Below, in pieces: positions 10,701 through 61,527 of a stretch of DNA of 64,000 bases; within the stretch, counting starts at the first letter, position 1, and the number at the start of each line of letters is the position of its first letter. The notes below the pieces were generated by a model that was given only the letters and a program-made list of their open reading frames with translations, did no database searches and was not told the origin of the DNA. A program made the position numbers and the translations under genes. The DNA lies in assembly GCA_014925825.1 (NCBI GenBank), contig JACGCK010000182.1:24627-88626 (forward strand), read 5' to 3'. This DNA comes from Pholiota molesta. Taxonomy: Eukaryota > Basidiomycota > Agaricomycetes > Agaricales > Strophariaceae.

Positions 10701-13700
10701 CCACCTCTCAACTTTAACACCCTCTTCCGTGACCACCTCAAACAAACACGTCGCAATCTGCATAAAATTCGCTTCGCCGAAGAACGTTTTGAACTACAAG
10801 GCCAGGCTCATCGCGCGTCCTATGTTAAAGTCCGAAACCTTCTCTCAGGTGGCTCCGCTAAAAGACTCTACGACAACAAGTTCTCATCACTACCTCTTGC
10901 CCTATCCCCTGCCCCAACCTTCGATCCTACTAACTTGCTTACAGGACCAGAAAACATCAAGAACACAACAGTACATTACTTCGAAGATTTATATCGTCGA
11001 ACCCCTAGACCCCCACAGCAGAAACCATGGTTAAACACACCTTCCGTTCAAATAGTTGCAGATCGCGTAGCCCTTAACCCTTTCACCTGGCCTAAACCAA
11101 TCAGTCTGATCGAACTACGCACAATCCTCTCCAGAGGCAACTCCAAACCGACTCCAGGACCTGATGGATGGGAGAAATGGTTCGTGAAACATTTAAATGA
11201 CAAAGCTCTCCAGATCGTCGTGAACCTTCTCAACTACATAATCACCAACTCCCATTTCCCTGATTGCGTCAAACAAACCAACATATCCACTATCCATAAA
11301 CGTGGTCCAAACGTCTTCCTCTACAACTATAGAGGTATCGCCTGCAACAACCTCATCCTCAACCTACCTTTTGCATGGCTCAATTTCTTGCTCTCCCCTT
11401 ATGTTGCGAAACACTCTCTCATACCTGACTGCCAAATCGCAACCCAACCAGGAGTCCAAGGACGTGACCTCCTATCATTCATCGCACAACTCGAATGCTG
11501 GGCTGAACGCGAAAATGTACCTCTCTACCTCCTACAACGAGACCAGAAAAAGGGATTCGATATGCTTGAACCTCAAGGGTTCTACGATGCAATTAACGCT
11601 TATGGACTTCCTGCTTCCATCATTGATCTCGACTTCTCCTCTCAACAAAACGTACCCTACAGAGTCAAAACCGCTTATGGCTTTACTGACGATTTCATTG
11701 TCAATGGCGTCACGAAACAAGGAGGATCGTTATCACCTTTAAAATGCACCTTGACCACCAGCATGGCTAATCGCTGGATTTCAGACCTTATCAACGACGT
11801 CGATGGCGCTTTAACCATCTCCTCTCACAATGCGCGCACCAACAACCACCACTCCCCTCCTGATAACATCAAATTACCTGTTTGTATGACTGAAGCGATG
11901 GACGACTCTCTTCTGATTACTCTGACCCTTCCTGCAATGATGAAAGCCGCTCTCCATGCTGATCAATTTCAGGTCACCTATGGATGGGAATCCGAATGGC
12001 GGAAAAGCATGTTCTATGCTTATCGAGCTCCCGATTTTCCTCCAAACCAAGCCAACCTCCATATTTCCATCCCCTCCGTAAATTACGCTAACCCTTCCTC
12101 ACCTGAAACTTTCCAAAACATCGTTCCCGTCTCAACAGATCACACCACCTTTCTCCGTGTACCCATCAATAAACCAGACGCCCACTTCGCTCACCTACAA
12201 GACATCATTACCAACTTCTCTTTTCCCCTCCTCTCTCGCCCACTACCCATCACCGCTTTACGTCGAATTCTCTCCCAATCCCTTATCGCAAAAATCAGAC
12301 CCCTCTTAGCCTTTCAGACTATAACCCGCGAACACGCAAAAACTCTGGATCATATGCTTGCAAATAAAGTCCACGTTTACCTAGGAATGCCCTTCCGATT
12401 CACCTCCACCACCCTATCATCCCCTTTGTCTAAGTGGGGGCTGAACTTTCCTTCCATCTCACGTCTAAATGATTCACTTGCCGTCACCGGAATGCAACGC
12501 GACCTCAACCACATCATTCCCACTTTTCGCAACATGGCCACCATCACCCTTGCCGACTGGACCTGCCAACTTAATCATTGTCATTCGCCCCTCAGCCGAC
12601 CCCGCGAACGTCATTCCTTTTCACGATGCAAACGCCTACTACCATATTCATGGATTCATGCGCACCATGTCCTCCACCAATTAGACCTATCTTTCTGCTC
12701 AACTGATCTCAGTTTCATCACTTCAGGCAATGTCTCTCTGATCCATCTCTATAATCTAACCACACCCCTAAACCAAAACCGTTCATCTCTTATATCTCCT
12801 TCTCTTCTTTCTCATTTCCAAAATTCTGGTATATCTTTCCTACACCAAGTTGGCTACTGGATCTTTTCTAATAACTCCCTAACATTCACATTTAAACCTT
12901 ACAATCTCTCCTTTCCATATTATTACACTCTTACCCGCGAATGGCCGAAACTCTTCTCTTGGCTACAATCCCTTCCATATTCCCTTACAATTCTTTCCTA
13001 TCCTTCTATCCATCTTCTCCTCCCTCGCAACCTCCGTCAAAACCTGGCTGAGAAAGCAATTTATCGCCTCTACTCTTCCTGTCAAGCCTTTCCACACTCC
13101 GCTCCCTCACACATCTTCTCCTCCGACGCTTCCCACATATCCAAGTCCTCTATGTCTTCAGTCACCACCGCCGTCGTCGGCAACCAAAACGCCTTTGTTG
13201 CATCCCTAAATTCCTTCGGACGCCATGCCTCTATCCTTCAAGGCGAAACTTATGGTATCCTCATTTCGACACTACTCGCACGCAAACTTGTGACAGAGTC
13301 ACACAGTGACTTGCCTTCCCCTCTCATCCTCACTGACCACCTCAACTCCGTTAACCTCCTCAACAACTTCCTACGCCCCACCTCCTCCCCTCCTCTATCC
13401 TCTCTAAACTCCAACCCTGCCCGCTCCTTATACAGATGGATACTCAACATTTTCGTAAAGACCAGATCGAGAACTTTCAACATGTTCGTGCACATACTGA
13501 CTCCAAATCCCTTCCCAGCTGCCTAAACCGCCTCGCCGACCACATCGCATCCCAATCACAAAAGTTCCTAGGACCACCACCTTCTCTTCCCGTACCTACA
13601 TTTACCATGGACCAACTCACCCCTTACGACAACACCCACGGGTTCATTGAAGATAACCTCAATATTTTCATCAACGAAGCCCTAATACAACAATCACCAA

Positions 13701-14368
13701 CCTGCTTACCCTCCTTCATTGGCCACCAATCCCTCTACAACACCCTTCCCCCTCCAGAATATCCATACACTCGTGCAGTTTCCGCGTTTTCCGCTGCAAT
13801 CCAACTATACAGCCGTTCACAACAACTAGACTCTGCTCTCACCCGTTCAAAACGTCTCAAAGCCGATGTCCAACCCTGGTGCCGTTTCGGCTGCCCTGTT
13901 CTCGAAACATCACATCATATTTTCTCAACCTGTCCTCGATTCTCCCAGCTACGAATAAATGCAACCGCAGAACTCAGGACGATAACGGAAACAACACTCG
14001 AAACATTCCGCACCGACTTCCAACACCTGCCAGATCTCGCCCAACTCATCGACGGATTCTTCCTCGACCCCTACTCATGGCCAACTACAAGGACATACTA
14101 CTACTTTGGCGTCATCCCAAAGATCAACCTCCTTCCACACAACCTACCACATCTATCAGACATTCAACTTCAACGCATACACCAACACATCTCAAACGAC
14201 CTTCACTCATCAGCAATCAAATTAGCTGGTAGAATCTGGGGCATCGTTCGCCGCTCTTTCTCACCCTTTCATCCTACTGCAAGAAAACCGACCGTCCTCA
14301 CCCTTCCCTCACACTTATCCCACATCACCACATCATCCACTCGTCTCTCCATCAAATATACTACATAA
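7752..14368 (+). CDS. LINE polyprotein: gag-like, endonuclease, reverse transcriptase, RNase H (one frameshift)
   Basis: Encodes the proteins for target-primed reverse transcription of the element. The main frame runs 7752-13526 (1924 codons) and continues in the -1 frame to 14368. Residues 1-300 are a gag-like region, 310-440 a Gln/Asn-rich coiled coil, and about 555-575 a hydrophobic segment. From about 580 comes an exonuclease-endonuclease-phosphatase domain (LAINANGLSDP, GETKSA, GDINATL, STDHRAIES). The RT spans about 1120-1430 with GPDGWEKW, motif A QRDQKKGFD and motif C EAMDDSLL. RNase H begins near 1790 (IFSSDAS, GETYGI, LTDHLNS) and ends in the shifted frame with HVRAHTDSKS. The shift lies at a TTT run at 13475-13477; one more T would restore a single frame of about 2,200 codons. 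A Cys/His-containing tail follows. It could be an active copy if the shift is a sequencing error. Confidence 0.88.
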
Positions 14369-14562
14369 CTTCTTCGTCTCTTCCATACATACTTCTCCTC
14401 CTTACTCTATCTCTGCCAGCCGGTAGCTTTCCCACAGGGTTTTGACGCACCCGCGCTGAGCATCATATGTATATCTCATATCTACTACTTCCTGTACCCT
14501 CACGACGCGCTAACGAGGTAGCCTTGCTTACCTGAGTTACTTACGTAACGTAGTTAGCCAAA

Positions 14563-14800: not shown

Positions 14801-14872
14801 AAGGGAGAGAGAGGACTTGTGGTCTTCGCACCCGAACGCGCAAAACTTCTATCTTATCATCTATAGACTATT

Positions 14873-16998: not shown

Positions 16999-19900
16999 AT
17001 GGCGTCTGCATCGGATGGTTATAACTGCGAGACTACTTCTACCCACAACTTGTCCGACGGGGTGAAATTACAATCACAGGGGCCCAAAGATGCTGTCGTC
17101 CACCGACGCATCTTCATTGGTCCTATGCCAGAGAGAGTCATCTCGCAAACGGAAATGCAGGCAAACCAAAAGAACCCAAGACCACGCTAGGCAGCGTTTT
17201 CTCTTTATCACTGGAGCCCGATAAATCGCATGGTGGGGACAAGATCGAAGAGGTGACACGGTTGGTCAAGGCGCATGCATTCCGGTTTTTCGTGCATGAA
17301 GGCGGCGATCCACAGCACTGGGATGAACAGCAGGAAGACAATGTTGCAGACGAACTTATGAGGCGATGGAAGGTCAGCGATTGGGGTGAATTATGGACTC
17401 ATCGACATGATCGCCGCAAGGGCGCTGGCGGTTCAAATAATTGGTTCGGCACCAGCTTTGAAGTGGGAAGCTTATTGGGTGTCAACCTTTACAAGCAGGA
17501 GAGCACATCCATGCCAAAAATCCTCTCATGTCAAGCACGGAAGCGGGCACTTCGGCGACACAAGATGAACCTAACGAAGTTCAAGTCCTCGCCAGATCTA
17601 CCTCAACACCATTGACTTCGTCTTCGAAATCTCACCTACCAATATCCCGTATCGACACTACATCATCTAAAGTTAGCCATCACGAAACTATTCCCGAATC
17701 GCTGATGGTTAATGACCCCGAAATACGAGACGATGCCGTACCAACACCTGCGTCTTCAGTCACAAAATTGTTGCATGCAGGCCCAACGTCTGAGCAGGAG
17801 CAGAAAGCAAAATCTCAACCTGACTTACGAATATCACCAAAACCCCAAGAGGTAAACAGAGCGCAGACAGACATGCCTGCCACCAATGTAAAGGGCAAGG
17901 CAAGGATGGTTCACTACGAAGAGCTTCCCGATTCGAGTCCTTCTCCTCCAATGGCGCGACCTGCACCTCCTGAGGACGTGCTGAGCCGGAACGAGAGTAC
18001 GACAGATATAAACACTAGCTCGGCTGCTGCGCTACAGACAGAATTAGCGTTGGACCGTTCAACAAATCCACCCGAGGATGAAGTGAAATGGGGGGACATC
18101 TTTTACGAGGTGACGAGATGTCTCTTCGGCTGCCAGTGATTTTATTGACTTTCTGGAAAGATAGGATGCTTATTAGGGCGAGTTACACGAAGGATGAAGG
18201 CATAACACATTTGATGAAGAGATAAACCGGAGCACTCGAGACCTTCGTTATGAAGACTGGGGTGAATTCATCGTTGCTTGGCGTAAAGACAGTCTCGAAA
18301 TCTACAGAGACCATGTCAGTTCCCTTGGAATAATTCGCAATAGAGACTAACGCCTCATACAGCTCATACCCTGCAAAGAACGGATGACAGGACATAAACA
18401 TCTTTCATATGTCATTCCACTGAAGTCGTCCAGAACGAAACTATCATTGTTCTCGTTTACCGATTTAACATTTTGCATAACATGCGCGCCAACGACAAGC
18501 AAGGTCAACCCAGAGACATCTCGATGGATCTTTCATCGAGAGAAGGAAGGCACCAATATCTTCATATTCAAGCACAAAAGCAGGTCAAGAGCATATGATT
18601 GGATATGGCAGTTATGGTCTGTATGCAACTCTTATTGCAGCGGATTTTTTCTGATATATTTTACACGTCAGGCGTTCAATGGGCGGAGAACTTCCGCCCT
18701 CCATAGAGTGTATAATCCACGATTAAGCGTCAAAGTCACGATCGACATTCCAAAGGATGAATCAGGAAACGAGGAGCCGGCAAAGTTGTCACGCGCAAAA
18801 ATGTGATTCAACTCTGCATTGATTCTCTCCACGACGTCCCGGACTGGAAATATCTAGTTGACGAGGAGATTAAGAAAGGATATTCACTAGGGCTAGCCTG
18901 GCGCTCTAAGGCCGCCCTCGACTGGATATGGCTGGAGGACGATGTAAACGGCAAACCCAGGGAATGGGCCGTCCTATGTGGACTGCCGTTGAAGCAGTTG
19001 GTCGGTTTCGCATTCATTTTCAATCCATCTTATTGTCTTCGATGCTAACCTTTGCTCTAGGCTTCAGCGCCACCAGCCTTGGAGATTCGCGTCGCGTATC
19101 ACGCACCCAGTCATATACATCTGAAGGACGGTACTATCGCAGAAGAACCACCTTCCATCGAAGGCTACTTGGACCGAATCAGACCAAACACGCAGACGAA
19201 GCAGTCTACCTACCTCTCAGTTCATCAAGGCAATATTTTTCTACTGAACCCGGTCAACGCATCGCCGCCAATGCCACCAGGATTGCTTCATATTTCAACT
19301 GGAAGTCTCGATGCCCAGATTCAGAGCCTTCGGCACGTAGAGACGCGGCGTGGGATGAACCAGATCATGACAGCGACTGCAGTCTTGGATCTGCGCACAA
19401 TTATCGCTGTGCGCAGGTCCTTCCATGCAGTTCCGTCACATATGCACAACGACACTGAAGCCAAGGATGAAGAAAGGCAGTATAAGAACTTCACCGCAGA
19501 GCCAAGAACGGCAGAGGACGAGGAGGATGAAGGCGGAGACGCTGGCCTTGCCAAAATTCAGGATCGCACACGAACCAGAATAAGGCGATCATTCGAACTG
19601 TTGCTGAAAACGGGGCACGTCCTTCGATTTGAGGTATGCAACGTCTAAAAACGTGGCTAAACGCGGTTTGCTCACCAATGCATCTTTAGGCACATTCTTC
19701 TGGGGTTGCACTGGAGTGGATCGACAGACTTCGGGCGCTTGTAATCTATTGGAAACTGCGACACCGTACCGATGCAAAGCAAGAGATCGAGCTTGCGCAA
19801 GCAATGCGACCTCGGTTGACCCCACAACACGGGTGCATGCCGAAGACGAGGAACTTCCTCCTGACCCTCCAGCAGATCTGTCTGCCCCTTTGCTGCGATG

Positions 19901-20519
19901 GATTCTTTGTACAATTGGTGCGTTTTGGAAGGTTGCAAAGCGCTATCCAAGTTTGGTCGCCTATACATGAGAAAAGGTCTGCGAGGGCAATATAAGTAAG
20001 CCAAAAGTATTTTTATAGGTGATGTGATTATTGATGCTCATGGAATAGACTTGTCCAACTCTATTTGGTGGCCGGTCATCTTGTTCACTTCCGCATCAAT
20101 GGTCATTCCTCGATATACCCGGCCATGCGGAAGAAAATTAATTTGCTGGACGCATATGTCTGTTCAGGCTACTTGGCGACACAATGCCTGCCAAAGGACA
20201 ATATCAACCAAACGAGGAGCCCGCCCCGCGGCGGTACCAGGACGGGTTGGAAACGAATGATCGCGAAGAGGATATGCTCTTTGTTGTCTGGTACCGCCCG
20301 CAACCCCAAATGTTTGATGCTGACCAGGATCCAACGGTCACGCCGGTTGTCTCGAAGTCGGTTCCCGGCTTATCTGCTAAGAACAAGATGCTGGTGTTCA
20401 AGACGAGAAGTATTCTCGAGCGTGATGCTTGGTGTTGGGCTATAAATTCTGAGATCGAGAAAATCGTTAGAGCTCAGAAACCTCGGGAGAAATGCTACGA
20501 GAAACAGGCAGCTTGTTGA
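16999..20519 (+). CDS. Spo71-like PH-domain protein, frame broken at several homopolymers
   Basis: Large protein with PH-domain-like segments. The conserved pieces resemble the fungal Spo71 family, whose yeast member recruits the lipid-transfer protein Vps13 to the prospore membrane; this assignment is by recalled pattern. Visible landmarks are HRRIFIGPMPERVISQTE near the start, the RFFVHEGG and WKVSDWGELW region, a long Ser/Thr-rich linker (17.53-18.08 kb), a first PH-like core (YEDWGEFIVAWRKDSLEIY, SYVIPLKSS), a middle block (WAVLCGLPLKQ, ALEWIDRLRALVIYWKLR) and a C-terminal core (WYRPQPQMFD, MLVFKTRSILERDAWCWAI). Introns lie near 18110, 18299, 18620, 19003, 19635 and 20007. The reading frame steps by -1 at about eight places, each fixed by one added base in a short run (17168, 17516, 18210, 18723, 18797, 19820, 19885, 20193). 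A sequencing cause is more likely than a pseudogene. The junction near 18109 remains unsolved. Confidence 0.65.
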
Positions 20520-42900: not shown

Positions 42901-43268
42901 GGTGGGCGAGGGAATCAGGGTCAGTCCCATTCTCCGGTCAACATGATCACCCTCCACGGATTGCTTACTTTCGATCTGCGAATGAGAATTTGCTGAAGGG
43001 GACGAGAGCAAGATCACCCTCAGCATTGGCAACGGCGGCGCCTGGCCTTCCGAGCTCAACCTAGTGGTGCGATCACTTGCTTCAGACTATGTTAGGGGCG
43101 CAGGACAACGCCTCGGCTTACTAGGTCTTTGGGGGCGAAGACATCTGCGCCCTCCTTGAACGAGAATCCGCCGGAGACGGGCTGTACCATAGCGCTCTTG
43201 GACTGCAATGGTGGTTGTTGTAACGGAGCTTGGGTCAAAAGACCCAAGAAAGCGAAGGGGAACCTCAT
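39991..43268 (-). CDS. secreted dipeptidyl-peptidase V-like S9 serine peptidase
   Basis: Extracellular prolyl-oligopeptidase-family enzyme expected to release N-terminal dipeptides. The start at 43268 gives a signal peptide (MRFPFAFLGLLTQAP). The N-terminal two thirds form a seven-bladed propeller, with blades such as VPFSKFSFADRKN, AHVVEGEDNSEIHAFEV, FGGTDDFDTSNTHIVYTT and VFNTQGTKVAWLELDKDGYE. The C-terminal alpha/beta hydrolase has the catalytic serine in AVAAGASWGGYAV, aspartate in LLIHGSKDYRLPE and histidine in VVFPDENHWVLNHG. It ends FVGEKSQR. Many short introns. In 41218-41391 five single-base gaps in G, A, T and C runs break the frame around the start of the hydrolase domain; adding one base at each gives a continuous family-like protein (WALKPKGWKAGD, then WEDQWSTRWNPN). 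The gene is probably intact. Confidence 0.9.
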
Positions 43269-43623
43269 GCGGGCGTCACGGCAAGGAACAGGGGCCTTGT
43301 GAGTTTAACCTTGACCCAAGCGTGGCAGAACGCGTCCTTGATAAAGCGAGAAGACTTACGATATCGCAATACGACCCACAGGTGGTATAATCGGCGTAGA
43401 CGACGTGGGGAATTTCTGAGTTGCGCGTGAGCACTATCCCAGCACCATACGATCGCTGGGCTAAATATTGAAATCACCGCTTCATTGCAATTCGTCATTC
43501 ACACCCCCGAGACGAATTCCACAAGGTTGTAAATGAAATGTGCACACGGCGATGCTCAGAATAGATACAGACATGGAGGTATGGTATACAGAAATAAAGT
43601 CATCTATGTAGCATAAGCATCAA

Positions 43624-44617: not shown

Positions 44618-44698
44618 GGTGGATGGAAGGGAAGAGCGTGTTGTTATAAAAATTAGAAGTCCGCTCAAAAATCATTTCGACCCTTAGCGATCATAATC

Positions 44699-45960
44699 AT
44701 GGCCATCGTCGTCTCCCCATCCGAGCTTCAAGCTCTCGAGGACTGTCTCCTCAACAAATCCGGCGATGTCGTGCTACACACGCGATTCCGTGCTCTTTCA
44801 CCTTGAAGGCGCTAAAATCAGAAGAGTCCGTCCAAATCATCTCGAAAGGTGCGTAGGCATAAGATCTACGACTGTAACTAAGCTCATGGTCTTCAATCAA
44901 GGTTTTAGTGATCCATCTGCGCTGTTGAAGCATGAGCTGGCCTACTGCCTAGGCCAAATAGGAAAACCAACGGCGCTTCCAGCCTGGAATCTGTCCTAAG
45001 AGATGCCTCTGAAGATCCAATGGTCCGGCATGAGGTGCGATTGTTATTTTTTCCCTCTCAACAAGCACCACGGCTGACTATACGCTCATTAGGCAGCTGA
45101 AGCTATGGGAGCCATTTCAGATCCCTCCTCCGTGCCCGTCCTGAACGATTCCTTGCCGATCCCGAAAGAAGCGTCCGAGAAACCTGCGAGATCGCTGTCG
45201 CCAAAATCGAATGGGACAATTCTGAAGAGGGCAAAAAGCATCATGCCAGCCTCAATGATCTACAGTTCCGTACGTGCTGTTACCCCGTCATGCGCCATAG
45301 CTAATTGATTATTAGCCTATATACTTCCGTTGATCCCGCTCCGCCTTCGTCTAATCTCCTACTCGGTAACTTGAACCCGGAAGACGTCTCTGAAGCGGGT
45401 GTCGAGCGTCTGAGGAAGGAGCTGGTTGACCCCAACCTCCCCCTTTTCCAAAGATACCGCGCAATGTTTGCCCTTCGCAATATTGGTACACCAGCAGCCG
45501 TTGATGCTCTTGCCTCTGGATTCTCCGACGACAGTGCATTGTTCAAGTAAGTCATCGTTCATACAACAGACAGAACAGTCCCGAGCTGACGACGACATAT
45601 TTAAAGACACGAAATCGCGTTCATCTTTGGCCAACTCCTTCACCGCACTCCGTCCCATCCCTTCTCAAAGTCCTGGAAGACACCAAGGAATCAGACATGG
45701 TCCGCCACGAAGCAGCAGAAGCCCTCGGCGGCATCGCCACACCTGAGGTCCTACCCCACCTCCGCGAATGGATGAACAAGGAAGACGCTCCTCGAGTAGT
45801 CCGCGAGAGCTGCCAAGTTGCGATTGACATGTGGGAGGTATGTGCTAGTATTGATTTGGTCAAAGCTCAATAATTTTAATCCTCAAAATAGCACGAGAAT
45901 TCTGACGAATTTCAATATGCGAATGCGCTTACGGGTACTCCTCCTGTCGCAGCAGCTTGA
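44699..45960 (+). CDS. LIA1: deoxyhypusine hydroxylase
   Basis: Diiron HEAT-repeat enzyme that completes hypusine on eIF5A. The protein is two four-repeat halves; all four His-Glu metal-binding pairs are visible: [32 protein letters not shown] and [12 protein letters not shown]. The end is [13 protein letters not shown] with stop at 45960. Exons begin at 44699 and are split by short introns near 44849, 45033, 45272, 45547 and 45838. The frame steps by -1 at four or five places (44796, 44983, 45143, perhaps the exon end at 45271, and 45639); each is repaired by one extra base in a short run, for example [16 protein letters not shown] and [15 protein letters not shown]. Length and repeat number then match the family, so a sequencing cause is favoured over decay. 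Confidence 0.92.
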
Positions 45961-46674
45961 ATCGATGTTTCGGGTGGATGATCAATACTCTGAACAAAAG
46001 TCATTCTGTATTTTACACATTCGCTTCATCTAATTCACTCCCCTCCACTAGTGTAATGCACCGCCCGATTTATTATCTGCAATGAGTGGAGACAAATGAT
46101 GAGTCTGTTCACGCCTACTTGCCCAGATTTATGGGTTTTGAGCATGCCCATAAATCCAAAATTATTTCGCTCTAGCCTGTTGATATCGACGTGACAAGAT
46201 TTCAAGCAGAAATCGCCAATAGTTGCTGAATTAGAATTGACATGTTCTATTAGCTATTTTACAACAGGCAAACAAAAATCATCCAAAGATTGTAGACTTC
46301 ATCAATGCAAGCGAAGAAGTTGTTCGAAAAAGAAAAGAAAAAACAGAGTAGCATGACATGGAGAGGATGCGAGTGATTTAACAAGTGAACTGACTGGAAC
46401 GGTGTTGGAGGTACATACTCGGACTTGGCTAGGAAAGCCAAATGCAATGCATATCGGTGCAGTTTGGTTTTATGGGGATCTTCTACGGATAGATGCTATG
46501 CGAGGTGTAGAATATGTGTTTGGCTGGTGAGATGTTTGAGTTTGAGATGGGTTGCTAATCATTGAGTGAGGGTGGCTCCAAGGCCGTTGAATAGCCAGTG
46601 AGTGAACAAGTGAACAGAAAAATTGAAGTTGGTGTCGCGAGGAAACCAAAATATTAAGCCAAGATATTGTGTTT
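45961..46674. other. intergenic, converging genes
   Basis: AT-rich stretch of 714 bp with no ORF of note; it should contain both 3' UTRs. Confidence 0.5.
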
Positions 46675-48460
46675 TTAAGTTCTCGCACTCCTCCAAGCGC
46701 TCTGCATGGCAATCCTTCTCGCCTACAAGTATGATCGCGGCCATCAGCCCAATCCCGGAACAGTAAGGACAAAGGCCACACACCTGATCAAGTGATATCG
46801 AGCCCTCCCTTAGCTCGACCCTCTGTCTGCCATCGTCCTCCTCCTCCTCATCTTCTTCGAACGTCCGGCTCGCGGCAGGGCGCATGCCGCCAAACGCCGC
46901 CTTCCCTCCTGCCAGCGAGAAGGGCGTTGAAGCCACGGCGGTGCCAAAGACACTGGCGTTCTTGGGCGCACCGAAAGCGGCAAAGTCCGTTACCACTTTG
47001 CGGGGAGGTGAGGAAGGTATGGTGGATTTGGATGGGGAAGCAGGGGTGGGCCGGGGTGAAGTATGGGGAGAAATAGATGAATAAGGGGCATAAGATGATC
47101 TGGACATGGCATGGCGGGCGTTTAGATATTTTTCTGTGAAACGCGTTCCATGGACCTAGGAGGAAATGAGATAAATTATTACATTGCCCGAAATCGATGA
47201 AAAGATAAGTGCATACCCTCTTGAGCAATGGTCGTGCTTCGTCCAGCGAGTTCGCATTTGCGAACACTTGTACATTGTGCTTGGCTTCTTCAGACTCCTT
47301 GTATATGCTCTCAATGACGACCTTTTTCGTGCTTTCATTTCGGAGCAGGAGTTTCTCATGGAGTTCGCGAGCGACGTCATCAACCTCTCGTTGTTTCCGA
47401 GAATGCGCTGCGCAACAGCGTGTCCAACTTCGCGGACGAGGCGTTCCATGTCGAGGTTCTCGAGCACGCTTCCTACGATGGCATGCGTCAATAGATCAGC
47501 TGTTAGGAGTGGTAGCATGAGTCCGGAGGTGATGGACGTAATGGCTTGATAGAAATCAGTAGCATACTAATAGGGGTAATCAATGTCAAAATCTAAGCGT
47601 CGCTACTGATGAACATCGCTCACTGAATATCCACTGAGAGCAGGTTCACATGCGACGAAGAACTATAGAAATATGAGCACACCCATAAGATCAGGATAAA
47701 GCAGCACTTGCGAGTGTGATTCCCCGACTGGCCATCAAGCGAGCGAGCTGTAGTGGGTCATTGCCATCAGGAGAACCCTCATCGAACCCTAAAATCAAGA
47801 AAGGTTCGGTGACATATCACCTAAACGAAAATCAACATACCATCGCCGTATTCTCCAATTCCATGGGGCGGCGCATCCGCAATGAGCACCACCATTTTGC
47901 TGGAATACGGTCTCCAGTCCATGTTGACCGCCTCCGCCAGTGCAGCGGTCACCGCCTCTGGCCCATCTCCACCGCCCGAAGCATACAGCGTCGACAGATT
48001 TTTGTGCACCTGGCTGATGTCGGACGAGAAGCCAAAGTTCTTGGTGATGTACGTATGGTCCTGCGGGGGGTGATCCCGGAAAGCGACGAGCCCGACGCGA
48101 AGGTCTTCTGGGCTTTGGAGCTTGCCCGACTCAAATATGTGCGCGCAGATAGACTCGATGTTCTTCGTCGCGGAGGAGATGTACGTTCCTTGGCTGCCGG
48201 TGCAGTCTTGCACGAAAACGAGGTCCCTACACGATGGTGACGAGAATCAGTGATCTGATGAAGATGAACGCACAGGGGGGAGATTCTGGCAGCGGCTCCG
48301 AAGAGAAACAGCTAATGCCTAGTAGATGGGAGTGTGCTCACAGCTGCTTTCTGCCTGGATCGCTTTCAGTGTGTGTCGCGTTGAAGACCTGCGGTCCAGG
48401 TTGGTGTTCGAATGCAGGCTGGAGGCCGTAGCTCGAGTCCATACTCATATCTTCGTCCAT
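46675..48460 (-). CDS. von Willebrand factor A domain protein, VwkA-like but without a kinase domain
   Basis: Probable cytosolic protein with one vWA domain. It starts MDEDMSMDSSYGLQPAF at 48460. The metal-ion-dependent adhesion site reads DLVFVQDCTGSQGTYI, a DxTxS variant of the usual DxSxS. Other conserved blocks are DLRVGLVAFRDHPPQDH, LYASGGGDGPEAVTAALAEA, KMVVLIADAPPHGIGEYGDG and ASRGITLFFVACEPALSGY. These resemble the vWA region of alpha-kinase VwkA proteins. After it come a helical region (VGSVLENLDMERLVREV, SIYKESEEAKHNVQVF) and a Ser/Pro-rich C-terminus with an acidic run, ending RRIAMQSAWRSART. No kinase domain follows. About seven introns. No frameshift was needed. Confidence 0.85.
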
Positions 48461-51532: not shown

Positions 51533-52062
51533 GTCCTCTGTGTGATTCGTGCGCTGGGGCTGGCGTAGTTTAAGTGCACGGTGCGGACGACTATAAGGTA
51601 GATGGAGAGAGACGGCCGGGAGAATAGGATAGGATTGGGGTGCTGAGTGTTCTGGCGGTCAGAGCAGACGGGGAGGAGAGGAAATATAGCAGGAACACGT
51701 GATTGCAGAGCTGTTGCCGAATCTTGTCGCACCCAGTGCCACCAAGCTGTGCTCCAGACTGTTCACTATGACCACCCCAGCGGTTCCGAAGTATCTGGCG
51801 CCCATAAGAACGCTCAGTTTTCGCTTTTATTTCGTACACATCCCCATTTCCAACTGAACAAAGAATTAAACTACCAGTGCGCCTTTCCTCTGAGAATTCT
51901 TCCGCCAGTACCATCAATTAATCAGAATCTTCGGACCTACTGAAGGAGCGTATTCTTGAAACGTCCGTCCCGTTTACACGCGTGAGCTATGCTGGTCCTT
52001 CTCTATTTAAGAAGCCGTTGAATTGACTGGAACAGTCACGGTGGTCAAAGAATTACCCCACC

Positions 52063-53715
52063 ATGTTGACCCTCACATCGCTCCCGGAAGACATCCTGAT
52101 TCTTATCTTGGAGCCTCTCGGAATAAACGAACTAACCGCCCTATCCTTGACTTGCCACGTCCTGCACACCATCGTACGTTTTTACCGTCTCATCTTGCAC
52201 ATTTCGGCGACTCACGAGGCACAGGTCAATGCATACGGCTGGTCAAACTACTTGCGCGCCAACCCTCGTCCCTCATACAGCCTAGCAAAGGCAAGAGCAG
52301 TCTGGTCCCCCCGTAAACGCGCCTATATGACGGCATAGCCGACTCAGCCTGGACGCGCGCAGCGTTCATCGCACGTCCTTTGTCGCGCACTTGGGCAGGC
52401 AAACTCCAGCCCGTACTCGCGATCAGCACCTCCCGGTTGGTCGTAGGCGCAGGCAGCAACCTTTATTCATATGCCTTCGGAGTACCGAAAGCAGGCTCGT
52501 CCTCCGCCCCACCCGTCACGTTTGAAGGAGTGGTCTCATTGTTGGAAAATCCCGATCGTGCGCGGATATTACCGCCATCACTTGTATCAACGATGATGGC
52601 TCGAACGTAATACTAGATGTCGCCTTCCATGACGGAGCCATAGAGCGCATCCGCCTATTTACGACTCGACCCCCTGCTGGAGAACAAGTGACACTATCTT
52701 TCTCGCGGATCAAACTAACTCCTATGCCCAACAACGATTTCGTAGAAAGCCTGTCGTCCGAATCCAACATCATCCTCGCACTATCCACCAATGGCTACGC
52801 TAGACTAAGCTCCAATTACGCAGACCTCTCGGACACTACTCCCCACTCACTCATCGACCTCCAAACCCGCAGCTGGTCATCATATCTATGTCTTGAGTCT
52901 TCCACACCCTACGCCGCATTCGGCACTGCTTCACAACGCCTCTAAATGTACATTCCATCACTGACGGTGGTATACTCTCCCCACGACCCACCGCCATCCT
53001 GCACACCAAACGCGCACCCGACCTCCCAGCCGAGCAACTCCCCACATCCGCTGTATACGGCCTCTCGCGGGCTCCTATCAATTCGCCCTGGGGCGCCTCC
53101 CCGCAGATCCTCGTCTCGGGCTGGTTCGATGGCCAAGTACGATGCTACGACCTCCGATCATCTTCGCGCGCTTCTAGAGACCTCAGCAACAGCAGCACTG
53201 GGCCCGGTGGCGGCCACGGTGGTGATGCCCCTCTCCTGCGGCCCGTGCTCACGCTGGCAGATCGCTGGTCGTACGAGTCCATCTATTCCGTGTCTGCGGC
53301 GGCGGGTCCGCGGCGCACATCGCCGCAGGCACCGCGCGACACAGCGTCGTGTCGTTCTGGGACGTCCGCTCGCCGTCGACGGGCTGGAGCGTCCACGCGC
53401 CGGGCAACGACCCGTCCCCCGTCTACTCGGTCATCCTCGAAAGCTCGCGTTTCTTTGGTGTAACGCAAAGTCGGCCGTTTGTCTATGACTTCGTGAGTAT
53501 TGGCGTGTTTGCCTCCGTTGATGATAAATCGTATACTTACCTATTGTTCCTCTCAATAGGGACCTGGAGTTTCGATGGACACATATCCGCCTATACCTCA
53601 GGTCCGAGGCATTGATAATCTTAAGCATAAGAAAGGCTCCAATCGGGCTACTTATCACGTCTTGAGATATGAACACAATAGTTCAGGTCTATGTAGTGAA
53701 CCAGTGGCTGGATAA
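52063..53715 (+). CDS. F-box and WD40-like repeat protein, frame broken at four runs
   Basis: Probable substrate receptor of an SCF ubiquitin ligase. The N-terminal F-box is LTSLPEDILILILEPLGINE followed by LTALSLTCHVLHTIV. The rest contains beta-propeller-like repeats, the clearest being PQILVSGWFDGQVRCYDLRS and HSVVSFWDVRSPSTGW, and ends VLRYEHNSSGLCSEPVAG with TAA at 53715. An in-frame intron may lie at 52171-52224; the last intron is near 53490. Four -1 frame steps occur at 52322 (CC), 52564 (GG), 52942 (C) and 53304 (GGG). One added base at each gives a continuous reading frame, including LTLADRWSYESIYSVSAAAG. The substrate cannot be told. Confidence 0.82.
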
Positions 53716-54053
53716 AGTGTTGGCCTCACTGGGCGTCATTACCTCTTGTTGAAATTTTTATAGAGTAGAAACAGACCAGAATAATGAATCTTCCTCTATT
53801 CATTATAGACATCACTAGTCTTCGACACTAATTATTACATAGTAAACAAACAGGAGCAGAGATTATGTGGTAAAAATGCAATGAGTGAACATTCGAAGAA
53901 AACAAAACGAGATAAGACAAAATCGAAATAAATTCCAGACACAAGTTCGAAAGATGATCGGAGGTCCGGTGAAAAAAAATTACAGACAATCGTTGAAGCC
54001 ACAAATGGTATAAATAAGAATATAAATTTGTTGAAGACGAGTATATCTCGCGA
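53716..54053. other. intergenic, converging genes
   Basis: AT-rich spacer between the F-box and RasGEF stop codons; nothing recognised. Confidence 0.5.
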
Positions 54054-57000
54054 TTATGAAGACGAAGTAGTTTGTGATTGTGACCGCGTTGCCCAATTGA
54101 ACAATTGGCGCACGTCATTGGCTGGCGGCTGGTCGGCTGCTTGTTTTGGTTCCACCAAAAGACTATTGCAAAGGACCAATTAGTTGAAGATGATAGAGAT
54201 ACAATACATGCACACGTACCTTCGACGGTAAAGATCCTGGAGATCGCCATGATGTTTAGATTTTTCAAAACATATATTCAGATATTCCTGGACCTCCGGT
54301 ATACCCTTGAGATTGTACGGAATCTGAAATCGTTGCATGTCTAAACCAATAAATTAATATCAACAAGCAGGCAGAGTCGATATCGCGTCACAAACCTTGG
54401 ACAATTCTAGCAAGTTTGTGTATTTATTGAAGTTAAGAAGCTTCCTGCTTGGGTTCGAAGGTGATGCTCGATGCGAAGGATTTCCTTCTCGGCAGAAGTA
54501 ACATCAGTGAGATACAAGCTAGAAATCAGGTAATTAATCAGCCAAGAATTGTAAACGGAATCCCAGCAAAAGCATACCTAAAAAACGGCACAGCAGGAGG
54601 TGCTGTGTTACGTAGTTTGCTGCGGTACTCGTGATAATTCCGACTATGGTCAGCCAGCCTTCGGAGGATTCAACATGGGCCTTGTATTTTTGCGACAGAC
54701 CCTAAAATCACGGAAATCAGTATTGATTCGTCCATGTAAAATGCAGACATACCATCCAGGTTTGGCGCAGTCTGGAAATGACGGAGGAGTCCAATGCAGC
54801 TAGTATTGAACGCGATGTGCTGAAATTATTCATGCTAGTACAGCGCTGGATGGATGAAAGACAAATTTAATTAGGATTACGTCAAGGAGAGAATAAATAG
54901 CCACGCACGTCCGCAACCTTCACGAAAAAACTTCACCAACAGCGTCCGCTTCTTGAGATCCGGTTCATTCAGAATACTTTCCGCAACCCAACCAGTTATC
55001 GCAGTGCTCAATGAACTGATAGCCCGCACATTGACAGGAGGCGCCGCGCCCTCTTGACCACTCTCCAGAATTTCCTCCGGTTGGATTGCGCAATACAGAT
55101 TGGCATTCAATCACCGTTAGCTGGCGCGCAAGCTCCCAAAGCGTCAAAGTCAGTGATGGAAATGTGTTCGAAATCCTTCTTCCTGAGGTTCGCGAGGAGG
55201 GCTTTCGTCATTGTCGGTCGAGGGACTTCAGTGACTGGGGTGTAACAGTCGGAGGATTGATAGACATCCCAGGATCACGTATGCGGTCTCCTCTTGGGCT
55301 GACAGTCATGTCGGAGGATTCGCTGCGCATTTGAAGAAGCTCCATGATACGCGCGGCTGGCCCAGGGAACATGGGCGCCAAACCCATCTCAGTAAACAAA
55401 ATCAGAGAAGGAAGGGCAACATCATCAACCCCTGTACGCCAATAAAGCTCGACCCAAGTCTTGACAAAATTCGAGACTCTTACCTCACAGGGATGCCCTT
55501 TCGCTGTTGCCATACATTCAGATCCTCTTCCCTAACGACGTTGGGCGCCTTCAAGTTGAAGCGTTCCACAAGCGCATCAGTCATTTCACAAGGATTCGAA
55601 AGAGGCGAAACGTCAAGAAGAAGATGCTGCAAAGGCCGGATCGACAATGCTGTCATGTGGGGTCATCTTTTCGACGAGGACTTCAATGGTGGCACCGACG
55701 AGATGGCCTTCGCTGTTATACGCAGCATCGTCGACCGGGTAATCGTGACGTAGATCCATCCGAGATCATTAGGGTCCATGGGGTACCCTGACATGGCACG
55801 CTGGGTATCTCTCCGTGATGAGCTTCTCGCCCATCTCTCTATCGTTGAGACTGCCTTCCCATGTGGTGCCGGTCTCATCAGTATTCGCCAGCGAAGTAGG
55901 AGAGGGCAAATCGCGTTCGACAGAAACATACGGGAGGCAGGGAGCGGCGCTGCCTCGTCCGGTGATGTAGCACGAGTGTCGTCAGAATGCACCCAGGATG
56001 ATCTGGTCAAGATGCTCGTCTCCGAGCCGGATGAGATTTCCGCGCGGACGTTGAAACGGCGAGGGTTTTGGCTTGGATAGTCAAGTCTTCGTCCTCCATT
56101 CCATTCAGGCGATATGCACTACCTGAGTTATTCCAAGCTGAGCACCTCGGGGTATTGGGCGGCATTTGTTCTCAGAGGAGTGAACGGCGCCCTAATTACG
56201 TTTTCGACATTCGGCAAGTTGACGATGAAAGGTCGGTCTCCAAATGATCGGTTAAGACAGACTTTCACTGCGGCTACACAGTCAGCGCCGGCTTTCAAAG
56301 CGCCCGTAGCTGAGCGCAGTAAAATCTTCTTCTCGTCCTCCTCTGATATCGTAGAAGGAAGTGATAGCGTCAAAAGGCGAACGGACTCCGCCAAAGCGCT
56401 TAGTGACGTTATACAGTCCCTCTTTGGCCGCCTTTAAGTTGCCTACTCGGTTTCCTGGTACATCTGGATGCTGCATCACGGCCTCAACGATGGTGAGAAG
56501 TTTGCAAACCATTTCCACGATTTCTTTGACAAGGTCGTACAACACGCCTGTACTAGATGCGTATGACGTCCGAGAATGAGAATGAGCGTGGCCGATGAAG
56601 GCAGCGATAGTGGAAAGATAGTGGTCGTGAGTGATCTAAGGGCTTCCATGACCTGTGCCGCCGTTGAAGTCCACAAGGAATGGAGGAGGTTCGGCAGGTG
56701 TAGATTCTTGTGATGAGAGGAGGATGAGGACGAGATACTACTGATTGATAGGTTGAGTTTATGCTGTGGGTTGTATTACGGTCCTTGAGGAGATATTGCT
56801 CTTGTCGTGCTCTTGCTAAGGATTTGACAAGTCCGGGGCTATTACCAGAATCCGATCCGTTTTCCCTTGCACGGGGCCCCACAAGCCCGGATCCTGGTCT
56901 CGGAACCATGCCACTGGGATCGCGCCCTCGGTGTTGGGTAGGCGTCCGTGTGGGCGAGTTCTCATCGTCCTCATGGCCATAATCTTTGTATGCTTGGCTC

Positions 57001-58258
57001 CCTTCCGAGCCTGGAGTAGCCGTCCGGGCAATATCCTGTTCTTCTGGGAGTTCTATGCCACACTTTATCGCCACGGTTAGAAACGACCGGACACGTGAGA
57101 ACGCCTGCCCTCCTAGCCGTAGCATCGTTTCCACCTCTTGCGCGAGTTCCTGGTCATCCAGATTTCCTTCCGACGCTTTTTTGCTCTGAGCAACTAGTGA
57201 AGCTAGATTCACTAGCAATTGTTTACGTTCTTCACTGAGAGTCGGAAACCGTCGCAGGATTGCAGCGTCTCGTTGCAAGGTTCCAGTCGACGCCAGAATA
57301 GAGCGTACACAACCAATGATGCACGCGGTTGAAGGTTGGAAATGGGTTATGCGATTCGCTCGTACAGCATTTTGTAGAAGGGAAAGTCCGTGTAGAAGAG
57401 GAACCATAAGTGGTGGGCAATATGGATCCACATCTTGTTCGGATGGTTCGCTTGTTATTGAAGGGTTACGACTATGTTCATCTCTTTGAAGTTGAGTTCC
57501 AGACGATATAGTAGTCCATGATGTTGCGGATGCAGAAGATTTATTATGGACGTGATGGCGGGATTCCGACTAAATTAAATTAGCTGATGCCATCTTATCA
57601 TATGTATAACAGTACTCACAATCATCCCCACAGGCTCTTCTTCCGTGAGGGGCGTCATCTCTGCATTCACATAATTGCTCGGAAACCACCCTCTTCTTCC
57701 CTCCAATTCTCCGTCCCACCACCCACTTCCATGTCGGTTTAACACATGGATGACCTGCCCAGTGCGAAAAGAAAGACACGTCGGATTCGGAGGATCCGCA
57801 GAGTAATCATGCATTGCAAGGACATATTCCGTGCCAAGTCGCACCGTTTCGTCGATTGGAGGACTGATTGAACGAGACCGTGAGCGAGAACGTTGTCTCG
57901 AGGTGGGTATAGCTAGTGATGTCGTCGAGGCATTTGTGGAGGAAGATGAAGGGGATATAATTGATAGTGTTGAAGTAGTAGATGCGTTGGATGTACTGCG
58001 ACCTCGTTGGTATATGTTGCGGCCAGTACTAGACCCAGCTGAATTGAATGATGGTGAAATGCTGCGCTCTCGAAACTGCGTCTTGGTATGAGATGGGCCA
58101 GAATTATAACCAGCCGTGGTATCAATGGCAAGACGCGAATGCATCGCGGTAGCGTTAGATGGAACCTGCAGGTATATCGAGTGGTCGTAAGCCATGTTTG
58201 TTGAGCGGGTCTCATGGAAAGAGTCGTGCAGGACCATGGAAGAAGCATCACGCACCAA
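54054..58258 (-). CDS. CDC25: SH3-containing Ras guanine-nucleotide exchange factor (Cdc25 type)
   Basis: Activates Ras by nucleotide exchange. The N-terminus is Ser-rich with an SH3 domain at about residues 145-200: YVLAMHDYSADPPNPTCLSF, GSGWWDGELEGRRGWFPSNY. A long helical middle follows (LVNLASLVAQSKKASEG, EVETMLRLGGQAF). The RasGEF N-terminal module includes LVGATIEVLVEKMTPHDS and LTFRLF. The catalytic domain has ELARQLTVIE, LSTAITGWVAESIL, KKRTLLVKFF and ends IPEVQEYLNICFEKSKHHG. Many introns. Frame steps occur at an A3 run (55631), a T3 run (55584) and CC (55756), each repaired by one added base, plus one near 55095 that does not fit a simple added base. The start is uncertain between 58258, 58234 and 58195. 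The symbol reflects family type only. Confidence 0.88.
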
Positions 58259-58270
58259 TGAATATCAAAT

Positions 58271-58716
58271 TTAACCCAGCATCCACCAAATTGCGATAAA
58301 AGACGCTAATGTTTGAGATCGGAGGCCCGAAGGATTTAAAGATATGCCGGGTGGAGTTGGGGGCGATGGAACCGGTATCGGTCTGGTATACCACAGGCCA
58401 ACCGAATAGTGAAGATAGTAGGGGGGGGGTTGACAGTTATATGGACCTGTAAAGAGACCAGCGACAAGGCGATTAGCGTAGTTGATAGAGTTGGACTTGC
58501 ACTGTGAATTAGGATATATGGCGAGAAATACAATGTATTTCCGGGCGCGGGCGGGGTAACTGGGAAGGAGAACGTCGTAGAGAGAATACAGAGATACAGA
58601 GATGGTATATTCACGGACGTTGTGGTCGCGGTGGCCTGCTCGCGGCGCGTACGACAACTTCAAGGTCCTTGCTCGATGCCGCCATTACCGAGCACGAGCA
58701 AACCCAACGCAGCCAT
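58271..58716 (-). CDS. small ORF of unknown function upstream of the RasGEF gene
   Basis: I do not recognise a family. An ORF starting MAALGLLVLGNGGIEQG at 58716 continues, if one base is added at GG 58664-58665, into LKLSYAPRAGHRDHN, ISVSLYSLYDVLLPSYPARA and KYIVFLAIYPNSQ. The frame then reads through to a TAA at 58271, or a 56 bp intron (branch-like CTATCAAC, acceptor TTTACAG) may intervene near 58500. The N-terminus and the segment before AIYP are hydrophobic. It ends only 13 bp before the first possible start of the RasGEF gene, so it could instead be a spliced leader or upstream ORF of that transcript. Confidence 0.3.
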
Positions 58717-59886
58717 AACAGCGCCAAATAAAACTCATCCACCTCACTTGAATCTCTTCTGCATGTGCTTTCAGTTTTTTTATCCAATTCCCCCCTACTT
58801 ACATAGGTCCTCCGACTTCAATTGTTCAAAGCACTGTCTGCAAACGTAATCAGCTCTCATCGAATCTTTCGTCCATTTTGCCATTACGGGCCGCTCAGCT
58901 TTTTTTGGGTAACGAACACGCTCGACCGAATTCATATACCACTCAACAAGGGTCTTCGAGGCAATTCGAGGCTGCGCATGCATCTACATTCCGGAATACC
59001 GGTTCCAACCGCACATGTCACAAAATGACAATCTTCAGATCATGTTCAAGTTGTAGGGTACACACATGGAATCTCCGTGAATAATCCACATCGTTTACCC
59101 ATGGAATTCTTCTTCGAAGTAATGCAAATATTTTCTACACGTCCTGGGATATATATCCTTGAAGATGGAATCCTTGAGTGCTGCTTGCATCATCGATTTA
59201 AAAAAAGACAAGAAAATTAGGCATTCGTACGTTATACTTACTAATCATAATGGAAATAGATGGTTCTGTCCATGCAGTCCATGCTGCCCATAAATTAATT
59301 ATGTTCTCAACTGTTTGTTCCGGTACCATCCGCATTTCTAATCGATGCATCCTCATATTTTTCACATTGTTATCAGCATTTACTGGGAACCTGTTCACCA
59401 GAGAAGGCAAATACCCAATATAGATCTCGAAACCTCACAGATTTGGTAAGACATACAGCGACCCTGCATTCGGAATATACTTGGATGCCAGACTCGGAAA
59501 ATCCACGCGCAATCTTTTCATAGTACACCGTACAAAATTTCAGCAGAACACCCGATTTTTTCGAGCTGTGAGCAAATTTACAGACCATACGCATCATCTA
59601 TGAGGAAATTTACTGCGGTAGATCCCGATCATAGACTGTCTTCTTCAGGATTTTGCCATCTGTCCGCACGCCCGCGCACAAGCGCAACATATTTTAATTT
59701 ATGCCATCACTTCATCCTCTCAACCCTTGACTATCTGTTGCAGAGTACTTCCTGCTTCGCATTCGCAAGCATTGCATTGTGCGTGCAACCGCCTGGGAGG
59801 CCCCAGCGCCACCTGTTCTGGTGTGACGCCTCGCAAGATCCAAGCCAAGGGGTCTCGATCGCCAATCCGCGATGGCAAGCTTAGCA
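58717..59886. other. intergenic
   Basis: About 1.2 kb with no protein-like ORF or RNA gene recognised on either strand. Confidence 0.45.
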
Positions 59887-59890
59887 GGCC

Positions 59891-59959: not shown

Positions 59960-60305
59960 ATGCACTCCCCCCCTTCTTTTTGCGACACAGAATTGCACCG
60001 AGCCCTCAGCGAGCAGGCCTTCGGGATCAAAAGTTTTGCTGTGTCGTCATCTTCGCCCCAACAGGCAATCGCCACAATCGTCCTGCTCGACGGTCCAAAA
60101 ATTACAGTCCAATTGACTACCCAAGGCTATTCAGTGGGTTCCTAGCTATTTTACATTTTTTTGCTCATCACTGATTATTATCTTAGATCGTCTCGACTAC
60201 CGGATCTATGAAACTATAGAAGACCTTTTGCAAGCGTCAAGTGCTATGTATGCCAAAAAGCGTCAAGAGGCGCTCTACGCAAAGCTTTCAAAGCTTTCTT
60301 CATAA
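59960..60305 (+). CDS. GSKIP-domain protein
   Basis: Small protein of 98 codons from two exons (59960-60137 and 60187-60305) with a GTTCCT donor. The pattern fits the GSKIP domain, known from animal GSK3-beta interacting protein and the N-terminal part of CLU proteins: FCDTELHRALSEQAFGIKSF, IATIVLLDGPKITVQLTTQG, then DRLDYRIYETIEDLLQASS and KKRQEALYAKLSKLSS. The strand-rich first half and helical C-terminal YETxxxLL motif are typical. The start at 59960 was chosen because the upstream ATG at 59918 lies too close to the TATA box. Its role in fungi is unknown. It is convergent with the OGFr-like gene. Confidence 0.75.
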
Positions 60306-60540
60306 TGGCTGACGATATGTGAGTCCCTTGTTCAACTTCTGTCGAAAGTTTCACATTGCTTAAATTGAAACGACAGCGTCTGGAATTAGGACGGAATAAC
60401 TTGCCATGCTTAGATTTAGACACCACATTGCTGGAAGTAAAAATACATGATATGAAAATCTTTTCAGATTTACGTCTGAGTCTCGTCGGCTGGCTGGGAA
60501 ACCTGCTCTTTGTTCTGTTCCTTTTGAGTCATTTCCCCGT

Positions 60541-61527
60541 CTAAGATTCTGCTCCTTGGCTGGGTTCATCATGAGAGTCTACCTTTGGGGGTTCTGTTTC
60601 CAGAGTTCCAAAATGCCCCGTCACGGCTCTCCGTTCGAGAGCGCGCTCGTATTCTTGCGTGTAAACACGAATCCGTCCTCGGCCAGGCGGACTTTTCGTA
60701 TAAGATTTCCTACCCAGGATCTTTCTTCTTCGTTTCGCATGCAATTCGACCACCATCTATCCATGCTGCTGCGTATTCCCCATGAGTTCAATTCATTCGC
60801 TTCGCTCTGTTCGTTCAGAACGTGTAACAGAAACCCAGCGTTGAGGCGCTCCAGCCCCAATTCGGATAGACACTTCAAAATGCGGGAAATGCGAAGATTG
60901 TTGTGGGATGATCCTGGAGCACGGGGAGGGACGGTGAATAGTCGGATCTGTCAGAAAGGACATCGTCGGTGGCGACTTACGAACGAGATTATGGTAACGC
61001 GTTTGGTAGTCTTTGGGCTGAAGGAGCGTTCTACAGACCAGTAGCTTCTGAAGCCAATCGCATCCCGTAAAAATCGAGCATAAGCTTGTACGACTCGATG
61101 ACGCGTTGGATTATAACAGGATCAGCCTTCATCCGCTCTACTTCATGTTTATAAAGTGGTTGAGATTCGTAGTTCATCCCGTATTCCCGTATAGGAAACC
61201 TACAATCAGCGAAAGTCACCAAAAACTCGGAAGAATGTCAATTACAAGGAGGAAAAAGGGACGTACAACCACTGGATATATCCATGTTTATATTCCAACT
61301 TGTCATAATCTCCAAACCATCTACCAGAGAACGAGCGCATAAGCGAGAATTTAATCTCGGATATTCAAAATATAGATGGATACTTTTTGTGTATCTGAGA
61401 GATCGTACGCTCATCCGGTCTGCAGCGCAGATTATCTGAATAGAATTGAAGGTTCGCTGTCGCCGAAGTGTCCTCACGAACGTCGGATACCCGTCCAAGA
61501 ATTCTTGCACATCTTGGGAATAGACAT
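60541..61527 (-). CDS. opioid growth factor receptor (OGFr)-like domain protein
   Basis: Protein with the conserved OGFr N-terminal domain, named from an animal nuclear receptor-like protein but widespread in fungi with unknown role. Landmarks are DVQEFLDGYPTFVRTLRRQR, FPIREYGMNYESQPLY, MKADPVIIQRVIESYKLML, MKCLSELGLERLNAGFLLHV and SMDRWWSNCMRNEEERSWV. Introns interrupt near 61010-60960 and 61330-61200. The start MSIPK at 61527 requires one added base at 61513, and another is needed at the A3 run 60663-60665 to pass from AEDGFVF into TQEYERALERRAV; the protein then ends DSHDEPSQGAES. Boundaries of the middle exons are not fully solved. Confidence 0.7.

What the first reader, a model, noticed from the sequence alone, without database searches (positions are those of the whole stretch)
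13475..61513. About 30 single-base losses at homopolymer runs in at least eleven genes
In the LINE, Spo71-like, UspA, M3 peptidase, DPP5-like, MRT4, DOHH, F-box, RasGEF, OGFr-like genes and the small ORF at 58.5 kb, conserved protein motifs continue only after a -1 frame step, and nearly every step sits at a short run of A, T, C or G where one extra base restores the frame. The steps have the same direction on both strands and occur in unrelated, essential genes. Real gene decay would give mixed substitutions, stops and indels of both signs. One RasGEF site (about 55095) does not fit. The likely cause is homopolymer under-counting in the assembly, which would make automatic gene models here wrong or split.
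Basis: partly seen in the sequence, partly recalled or inferred. Interest (0 to 1): 0.75.

Follow-up and report, generated by a model that had tools for sequence, protein, structure and literature searches.

The report
Consensus base-loss errors in mushroom contig
The broken reading frames in this stretch of a mushroom genome are very probably mistakes in the assembled sequence rather than real gene damage, and they have distorted gene models deposited for it.

Summary
The window is the end of contig C93 (88,626 b), very likely of the Pholiota molesta assembly: two deposited P. molesta proteins lie on a contig of exactly that length. Seven genes tested with relatives or second copies show 43-44 frame steps of the one-base-loss kind and 6 one-base gains. 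The same assembly holds other copies of parts of this contig. Decisive is C218: over 12.2 kb it differs from the window by 18 substitutions but 51 one-base indels, and its RasGEF gene has no frame step where the window has 23. Three haplotype pairs elsewhere give 154 substitutions to 8 one-base indels (Fisher p 2.9e-27). Corrections: (1) errors are patchy (17.2-20.5, 34-46, 52.3-59.7 kb), not shown assembly-wide; (2) runs are short: 18 of 38 losses in runs of two, 12 in longer runs, 8 at single bases; (3) both signs occur, six gains in RasGEF including the site that 'did not fit'. For 31.5-47.6 kb no second copy was found, so there the case rests on homologous proteins. A known kind of artefact.

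The parts
17173..20489 (+). Spo71-like gene (PH_SPO71 domain at 18351-18803): window lacks 10 single bases relative to C101; C101 lacks 1 (17843)
   Evidence: From 17286 to 20189 the two contigs differ by one substitution only, so they are the same haplotype there.
31547..47569 (.). Stretch with no second copy found in the assembly; C101 ends at its left edge, C218 and C330 both end at its right edge on the same base
   Evidence: 40.5-41.0 and 41.6-43.0 kb were not used as DNA queries; one search also lists short matches of 77-88% to other contigs.
33848..36829 (-). M3 metallopeptidase (MepB/thimet oligopeptidase-like) gene with 4 one-base losses (34172, 35397, 35420, 36219)
40000..43268 (-). 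DPP5-like serine peptidase gene with 4 one-base losses clustered at 41286-41392
   Evidence: limits approximate
43600..44617 (-). MRT4 (ribosome assembly factor) gene with 2 firm one-base losses (43867, 43923)
   Evidence: limits approximate
44715..45873 (+). Deoxyhypusine hydroxylase gene with 4 one-base losses (near 44796, 44983, 45145, 45648)
   Evidence: limits approximate
52027..53612 (+).
   Evidence: name not tested here
54080..58150 (-). CDC25-like RasGEF gene: 15-16 steps of the one-base-loss kind, 1 two-base loss, 6 gains; no frame step in C218
   Evidence: limits approximate
52300..59744 (.). Error-dense right part of the contig, as far as C218 was fetched; the contig ends at 64000
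   Evidence: counts per kb

Best explanation
The frame steps are consensus errors, mostly single-base losses at short runs, in poorly supported patches of one contig of a two-haplotype Pholiota molesta assembly. Shown: where a second copy of the same haplotype is held in the same assembly, the copies differ by indels rather than substitutions, and RasGEF, the F-box gene and the Spo71-like frames run on in it. Inferred: the cause is thin long-read support near contig ends and in a bridging stretch that no other contig covers, with polishing that did not reach it; and that the steps in 31.5-47.6 kb have the same cause. The gene-calling pipeline then built around the errors with doubtful introns and skipped blocks.
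For: W vs C218: 18 substitutions and 51 one-base indels over 12.2 kb, against 154 and 8 in three haplotype pairs elsewhere (Fisher p 2.9e-27; a fourth pair, 88% alike, was left out). Two further stretches of C93 against C101 also give many substitutions to few one-base indels: 176 to 10 (9.1 kb) and about 155 to 14 (window 1-7.2 kb). RasGEF: 23 frame steps in the window, 0 in C218, with P0121 at four penalties and with P0122 at one. Of the RasGEF steps inferred from P0121, 15 of 15 of the one-base-loss kind and 6 of 6 gains have a W/C218 difference of the same sign nearby: 20 of 21 within 4 b, one at 15 b. F-box: one 530-aa frame in C218, five frames in the window. Three-way alignment over 47569-55617: one-base losses private to one contig are 14 in the window, 3 in C218, 50 in C330, so each contig has its own. 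They cluster by place: C330 lacks 12-16 per kb at 48-52 kb, near its end, and 1-2 per kb further in; C101 lacks 13 single bases at 30.0-31.5 kb, its own end; the window lacks 5-7 per kb at 54-57 and 58-59.7 kb and none against C218 at 49-52 kb. M3 (P0002), DPP5 (P0243, P0245) and DOHH together: 12 losses, 0 gains.
Against: No reads were available, so coverage and platform are not shown. The patches at 17.2-20.5 and 34-46 kb are not at an end of C93, so a contig-end effect alone does not explain them. W and C218 are identical at 49-52 kb, which a plain 'redundant copy is unpolished' rule would not predict. Eight of 38 losses are at single bases, not runs. Runs of 4 and 5 are not depleted relative to other contigs; runs of 6 or more are somewhat fewer in 31.5-47.6 kb (0.56 against 0.90 per kb) but more frequent in 52.3-64 kb (1.45). 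C330 does not carry the F-box gene as one frame either (longest 484 aa). At 58.0-59.0 kb the C218 frames are not longer than the window's. In 31.5-47.6 kb there is no second copy to compare.
Confidence: 0.96

Rival explanations
1. Real decay of one haplotype: the genes on C93 are pseudogenes in one nucleus of the dikaryon, with intact alleles on the other.
For: The assembly does hold two haplotypes, and no second copy of 31.5-47.6 kb was found.
Against: C218 and the window are the same haplotype by substitutions (3 in the first 8.2 kb, against 94 to C330), yet differ by 27 one-base indels there. No stop codons in the frame-aware alignments of M3, DPP5 or RasGEF (stops were scored -8, so the method leans against them). 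654 of 706 aligned M3 residues match P. conissans.
Confidence: 0.02
2. Unrecognised introns or exon-exon frame changes misread as frame steps.
For: These genes have many short introns (16 in M3, 16-18 in DPP5); a 4-base step plus an inserted codon at 34565-34571 in the first-pass M3 alignments vanished once GCGAG-type donors were allowed, and one with P0001 at 36572 remains and is probably of that kind.
Against: Introns of 42-200 b with GT/GC-AG ends were allowed; with good splice sites they cost less than a frame step (weak sites cost up to a little more). The steps remained, with no room for an intron between the conserved residues. The same method finds 0 steps in C218 RasGEF.
Confidence: 0.01
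3. Programmed ribosomal frameshifting in many genes.
For: Direction of the steps is biased towards one-base loss.
Against: Steps are absent in a second copy of the same gene and haplotype (RasGEF, F-box), lie at different places in each contig, and have both signs in RasGEF.
Confidence: 0.005

Closest known systems
Residual indel errors of long-read consensus sequence
   Same: Single-base indels far outnumber substitutions, losses predominate, enriched at runs, absent in an independent consensus of the same DNA; they split and distort gene models. Kastor (PMC12007338) and Polypolish (PMC8812927) describe such errors (seen only as starts of abstracts in the listing).
   Different: The runs are short (18 of 38 losses in runs of two) and G is over-represented among losses (20 of 38); errors are patchy within one contig.
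Redundant haplotype contigs in an assembly of a dikaryon
   Same: C101, C218 and C330 repeat parts of C93; other gene pairs show the same.
   Different: Here a redundant copy of the same haplotype (C218 with C93), not only the other allele, is present, which is what makes the test possible.

Membership tests
Long-read consensus indel error | One-base indels outnumber substitutions between two consensus copies of the same haplotype | tested here: met
   51 one-base indels to 18 substitutions; control pairs 8 to 154
Long-read consensus indel error | Enrichment at homopolymer runs | tested here: met
   30 of 38 in runs of 2 or more, p 1e-5; 12 of 38 in runs of 3 or more, p 0.009. C330 against W: 52 of 67 and 33 of 67
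Long-read consensus indel error | Genes unbroken in an independent consensus of the same DNA | tested here: met
   RasGEF 0 steps in C218; F-box 530-aa frame in C218; Spo71-like frames open in C101 at 10 of 10 sites, with one loss of C101's own elsewhere in the gene. Not testable for M3, DPP5, MRT4, DOHH: no second copy found
Long-read consensus indel error | Losses near contig ends or at low support | tested here: inconclusive
   Seen towards the ends of C101, C330 and C93, but also inside C93; depth could not be measured
Long-read consensus indel error | Assembly made from long reads | not testable with these tools
   The method for P. molesta was not found in the library searched; for P. 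conissans and 13 other species a passage names Illumina and PacBio, with Velvet, AllPathsLG or Falcon, finisherSC and Quiver (PMC8480192)
Pseudogene decay | Mixed substitutions, stops and indels accumulated on the decayed copy | tested here: not met
   No stops in the aligned frames; indels with few substitutions
Programmed frameshifting | Step conserved at one place in all copies of the gene | tested here: not met
   Absent in the C218 copy of RasGEF and of the F-box gene

The most novel reading that the evidence does not exclude
Within 31.5-47.6 kb, where no second copy was found, some of the losses in M3, DPP5, MRT4 and DOHH are real and mark a decaying or hemizygous stretch of one nucleus, whose structure also made three other contigs end at its edges.
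Probability: 0.02. Interest if true: 0.4.

Novelty: already known. Interest (0 to 1): 0.15.

Why it matters
It is ordinary biology behind a bad consensus. It matters for users of this genome: two deposited P. molesta proteins from a contig of this length are distorted, and surveys that count gene loss, pseudogenes, introns or gene number in this assembly could be misled. The natural control used here, two contigs of one haplotype, is a cheap way to tell consensus error from decay without reads.

Tried and rejected
Global shortening of homopolymers: not favoured. Runs of 4 and 5 are about as frequent in the window as in other contigs; runs of 6 or more are somewhat fewer in 31.5-47.6 kb (0.56 against 0.90 per kb) but not in 52.3-64 kb (1.45). 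A uniform assembly-wide error rate: not favoured; three haplotype pairs of CCT genes on six other contigs show 8 one-base indels in 10.6 kb. Setting their places against the family matches, none of the 8 lies inside a matched stretch; some, above all in C508/C555, could still lie in exons that the family model did not match. The fourth pair, C266/C613, only 88% alike, was left out. A chimeric contig: not favoured, on contig lengths alone: RasGEF and DPP5 share a contig length in P. conissans, Flammula and Gymnopilus junonius, and Galerina has M3, RasGEF and DPP5 on one; against it, M3 lies on a contig of another length in P. conissans and G. junonius. A rule 'errors only where two contigs are identical': does not fit C330, which is error-dense where it differs from the window, nor 49-52 kb, where W and C218 are identical. 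Of ten window ORFs scanned against Pfam, one matched above its cut-off (PH_SPO71), one below (Usp), eight not at all. Rfam and tRNA scans were empty. In some searches one candidate each was not scored; the window itself is missing from both lists, so probably it was that. The DNA search with 54-64 kb was not scored at all.
Full report
WHERE THE WINDOW LIES. It is positions 24,627-88,626 of contig C93 in a genome of 65.6 Mb and 625 contigs; the contig has 88,626 b, so the window's right edge is the contig's end. A protein search with the M3 gene returned a Pholiota molesta protein (P0009) on a contig of 88,626 b, and a search with the DPP5 gene a second (P0241) on a contig of the same length. 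I take the window to be from that species, a mushroom of the family Strophariaceae (that it is a saprotroph is recalled). A paper lists its accession as GCA_014925825.1 (PMC11856836, passages seen). How it was sequenced I did not find in the library searched. For P. conissans and other mushrooms a methods passage names Illumina and PacBio data, with Velvet, AllPathsLG or Falcon, finisherSC and Quiver (PMC8480192, passages seen). That P. molesta was made alike is inference.

THE FRAME STEPS ARE THERE. I wrote a protein-to-DNA alignment that allows introns (42-200 b) and frame steps (more GC-AG donors added). Against relatives' proteins the M3 gene needs four one-base losses, the DPP5 gene four, the latter the same with all three references. 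Not all references agree on extras: P0001 adds a 4-base step at a weak M3 intron, and P0242 two 5-base steps in DPP5. DOHH against the human protein needs four losses, MRT4 two firm ones and one that depends on the penalty. RasGEF needs 15-16 steps of the one-base-loss kind, one two-base loss and six one-base gains; one of the loss steps, at 55,934, is a ten-base loss in two gaps when C218 is set beside it. The F-box and Spo71-like genes were tested by second copies (below).

SECOND COPIES IN THE SAME ASSEMBLY. C101 (519,140 b) matches the window at 97.6% from 14,584 to 31,547, where C101 ends. C218 (48,218 b) and C330 (28,995 b) match from 47,569 rightwards; both contigs end there on the same base. 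No second copy of the stretch between was found: queries 30.5-40.5 kb (which lists otherwise only short matches of 77-88%), 41.0-41.6 kb and 43-53 kb. In some searches one candidate each was not scored; since the window itself is missing from both lists it was probably that.

THE DECISIVE COMPARISON. C218 and the window differ in the first 8.2 kb by 3 substitutions and 27 one-base indels; C330 differs from the window by 94 substitutions. So C218 and the window are one haplotype written twice, C330 the other. Over 12.2 kb the count is 18 substitutions to 51 one-base indels and 5 longer ones; 38 of the 51 are bases the window lacks. Most of the 18 lie beside longer gaps at 55.93-55.95, 56.06-56.07 and 59.25 kb and may be alignment effects. 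Three haplotype pairs of CCT genes elsewhere gave 154 substitutions to 8 one-base indels, p 2.9e-27. Other stretches of C93 against C101 give 176 to 10 over 9.1 kb, 40 to 0 over 1.5 kb and 47 to 7 over 1.9 kb. RasGEF has no frame step in C218 at any of four penalties while the window keeps 23. Of the steps inferred from P0121, 15 of 15 of the one-base-loss kind and 6 of 6 gains have a W/C218 difference of the same sign nearby, 20 of 21 within 4 b and one at 15 b. The F-box gene is one frame of 530 aa in C218 and runs through five frames in the window; C330 has losses of its own there and a longest frame of 484 aa.

THE SPO71-LIKE GENE. From 17,286 to 20,189 the window and C101 differ by one substitution, so here they are the same haplotype too. 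The window lacks ten single bases between 17,173 and 20,489; all ten lie in stop-free C101 frames of 103 aa or more, while the window changes frame there. C101 in turn lacks one base, at 17,843, where the window's frame runs on. At 17.0-20.5 kb there are 19 substitutions to 11 one-base indels; at 20.5-30.3 kb, where the two haplotypes differ normally, 218 to 10 (p 1.3e-6). The domain name rests on a Pfam match, PH_SPO71, E 7.8e-29; no relative of the whole protein was aligned.

EACH CONTIG HAS ITS OWN ERRORS. In the three-way alignment of 47,569-55,617 the one-base losses private to one contig are 14 in the window, 3 in C218 and 50 in C330; at 6 places only the window has a base, at 3 only C330, at 2 only C218. 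C330 lacks most near its end (12-16 per kb at 48-52 kb) and 1-2 per kb from 52 kb on; C101 lacks 13 single bases at 30.0-31.5 kb, its end; the window shows no difference from C218 at 49-52 kb and lacks up to seven bases per kb from 52.3 kb to the limit of comparison at 59.7 kb, though none at 57 kb. That is how thinly supported contig ends would look. The patches inside C93 need another reason, perhaps a dip in read depth that also ended the three other contigs; this is inference.

WHAT THE LOSSES LOOK LIKE. Of 38 one-base window losses against C218, 18 are in runs of two, 12 in runs of three or more, 8 at single bases; 20 are G. The run association is real but the runs are short. Long runs are not clearly scarcer than in other contigs, so 'homopolymer under-counting in the assembly' is too general a phrase.

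EFFECT ON GENE MODELS. The deposited M3 protein P0009 has 610 aa against 680 in Hypholoma and lacks two conserved blocks of 18 and 53 aa that span three of the four step sites. When P0241 is laid on the window with frame steps all but forbidden, it needs a 46-b 'intron' with the ends GTCAAG..AAG next to the DPP5 losses, and it lacks 16 and 8 aa found in P. conissans.

WEIGHING. Decay is refuted where a second copy of the haplotype exists, since the copies differ in indels but hardly in substitutions. Programmed frameshifting is refuted by the unbroken copies. Missed introns were allowed for and do not remove the steps. In 31.5-47.6 kb the same conclusion rests on homologous proteins, on twelve losses and no shared gains in M3, DPP5 and DOHH, and on analogy. 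Nothing here is a new kind of thing.

Noticed in passing
window 7627-14584: LINE insertion with a 1937-aa stop-free frame (7713-13526) is absent from C101, whose sequence runs through an empty site at about 502164-502168: heterozygous. A CCA array stands at its left edge (7626-7683) and ATTTC repeats at its right edge.
   Followed up: partly
window 13300-13800: A near-identical LINE copy at C455:6695-7196 is one base longer than the window's; a third copy, C152, is 78% alike.
   Followed up: no
window 47569: Two contigs of different haplotypes (C218, C330) end on exactly the same base, while C93 runs on; this looks like a branch point of the assembly graph.
   Followed up: partly
window 31547-47569: No second haplotype found for this 16 kb although both flanks have one.
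   Followed up: partly
G000 contigs C110/C586, C508/C555, C537/C478, C266/C613: CCT chaperonin genes occur in paired contigs; three pairs are about 98% alike, C266/C613 only 88%. Gene counts of this assembly are likely inflated by haplotype copies.
   Followed up: partly
window 58421: Longest run of the window, G9; C218 has one G more there.
   Followed up: no
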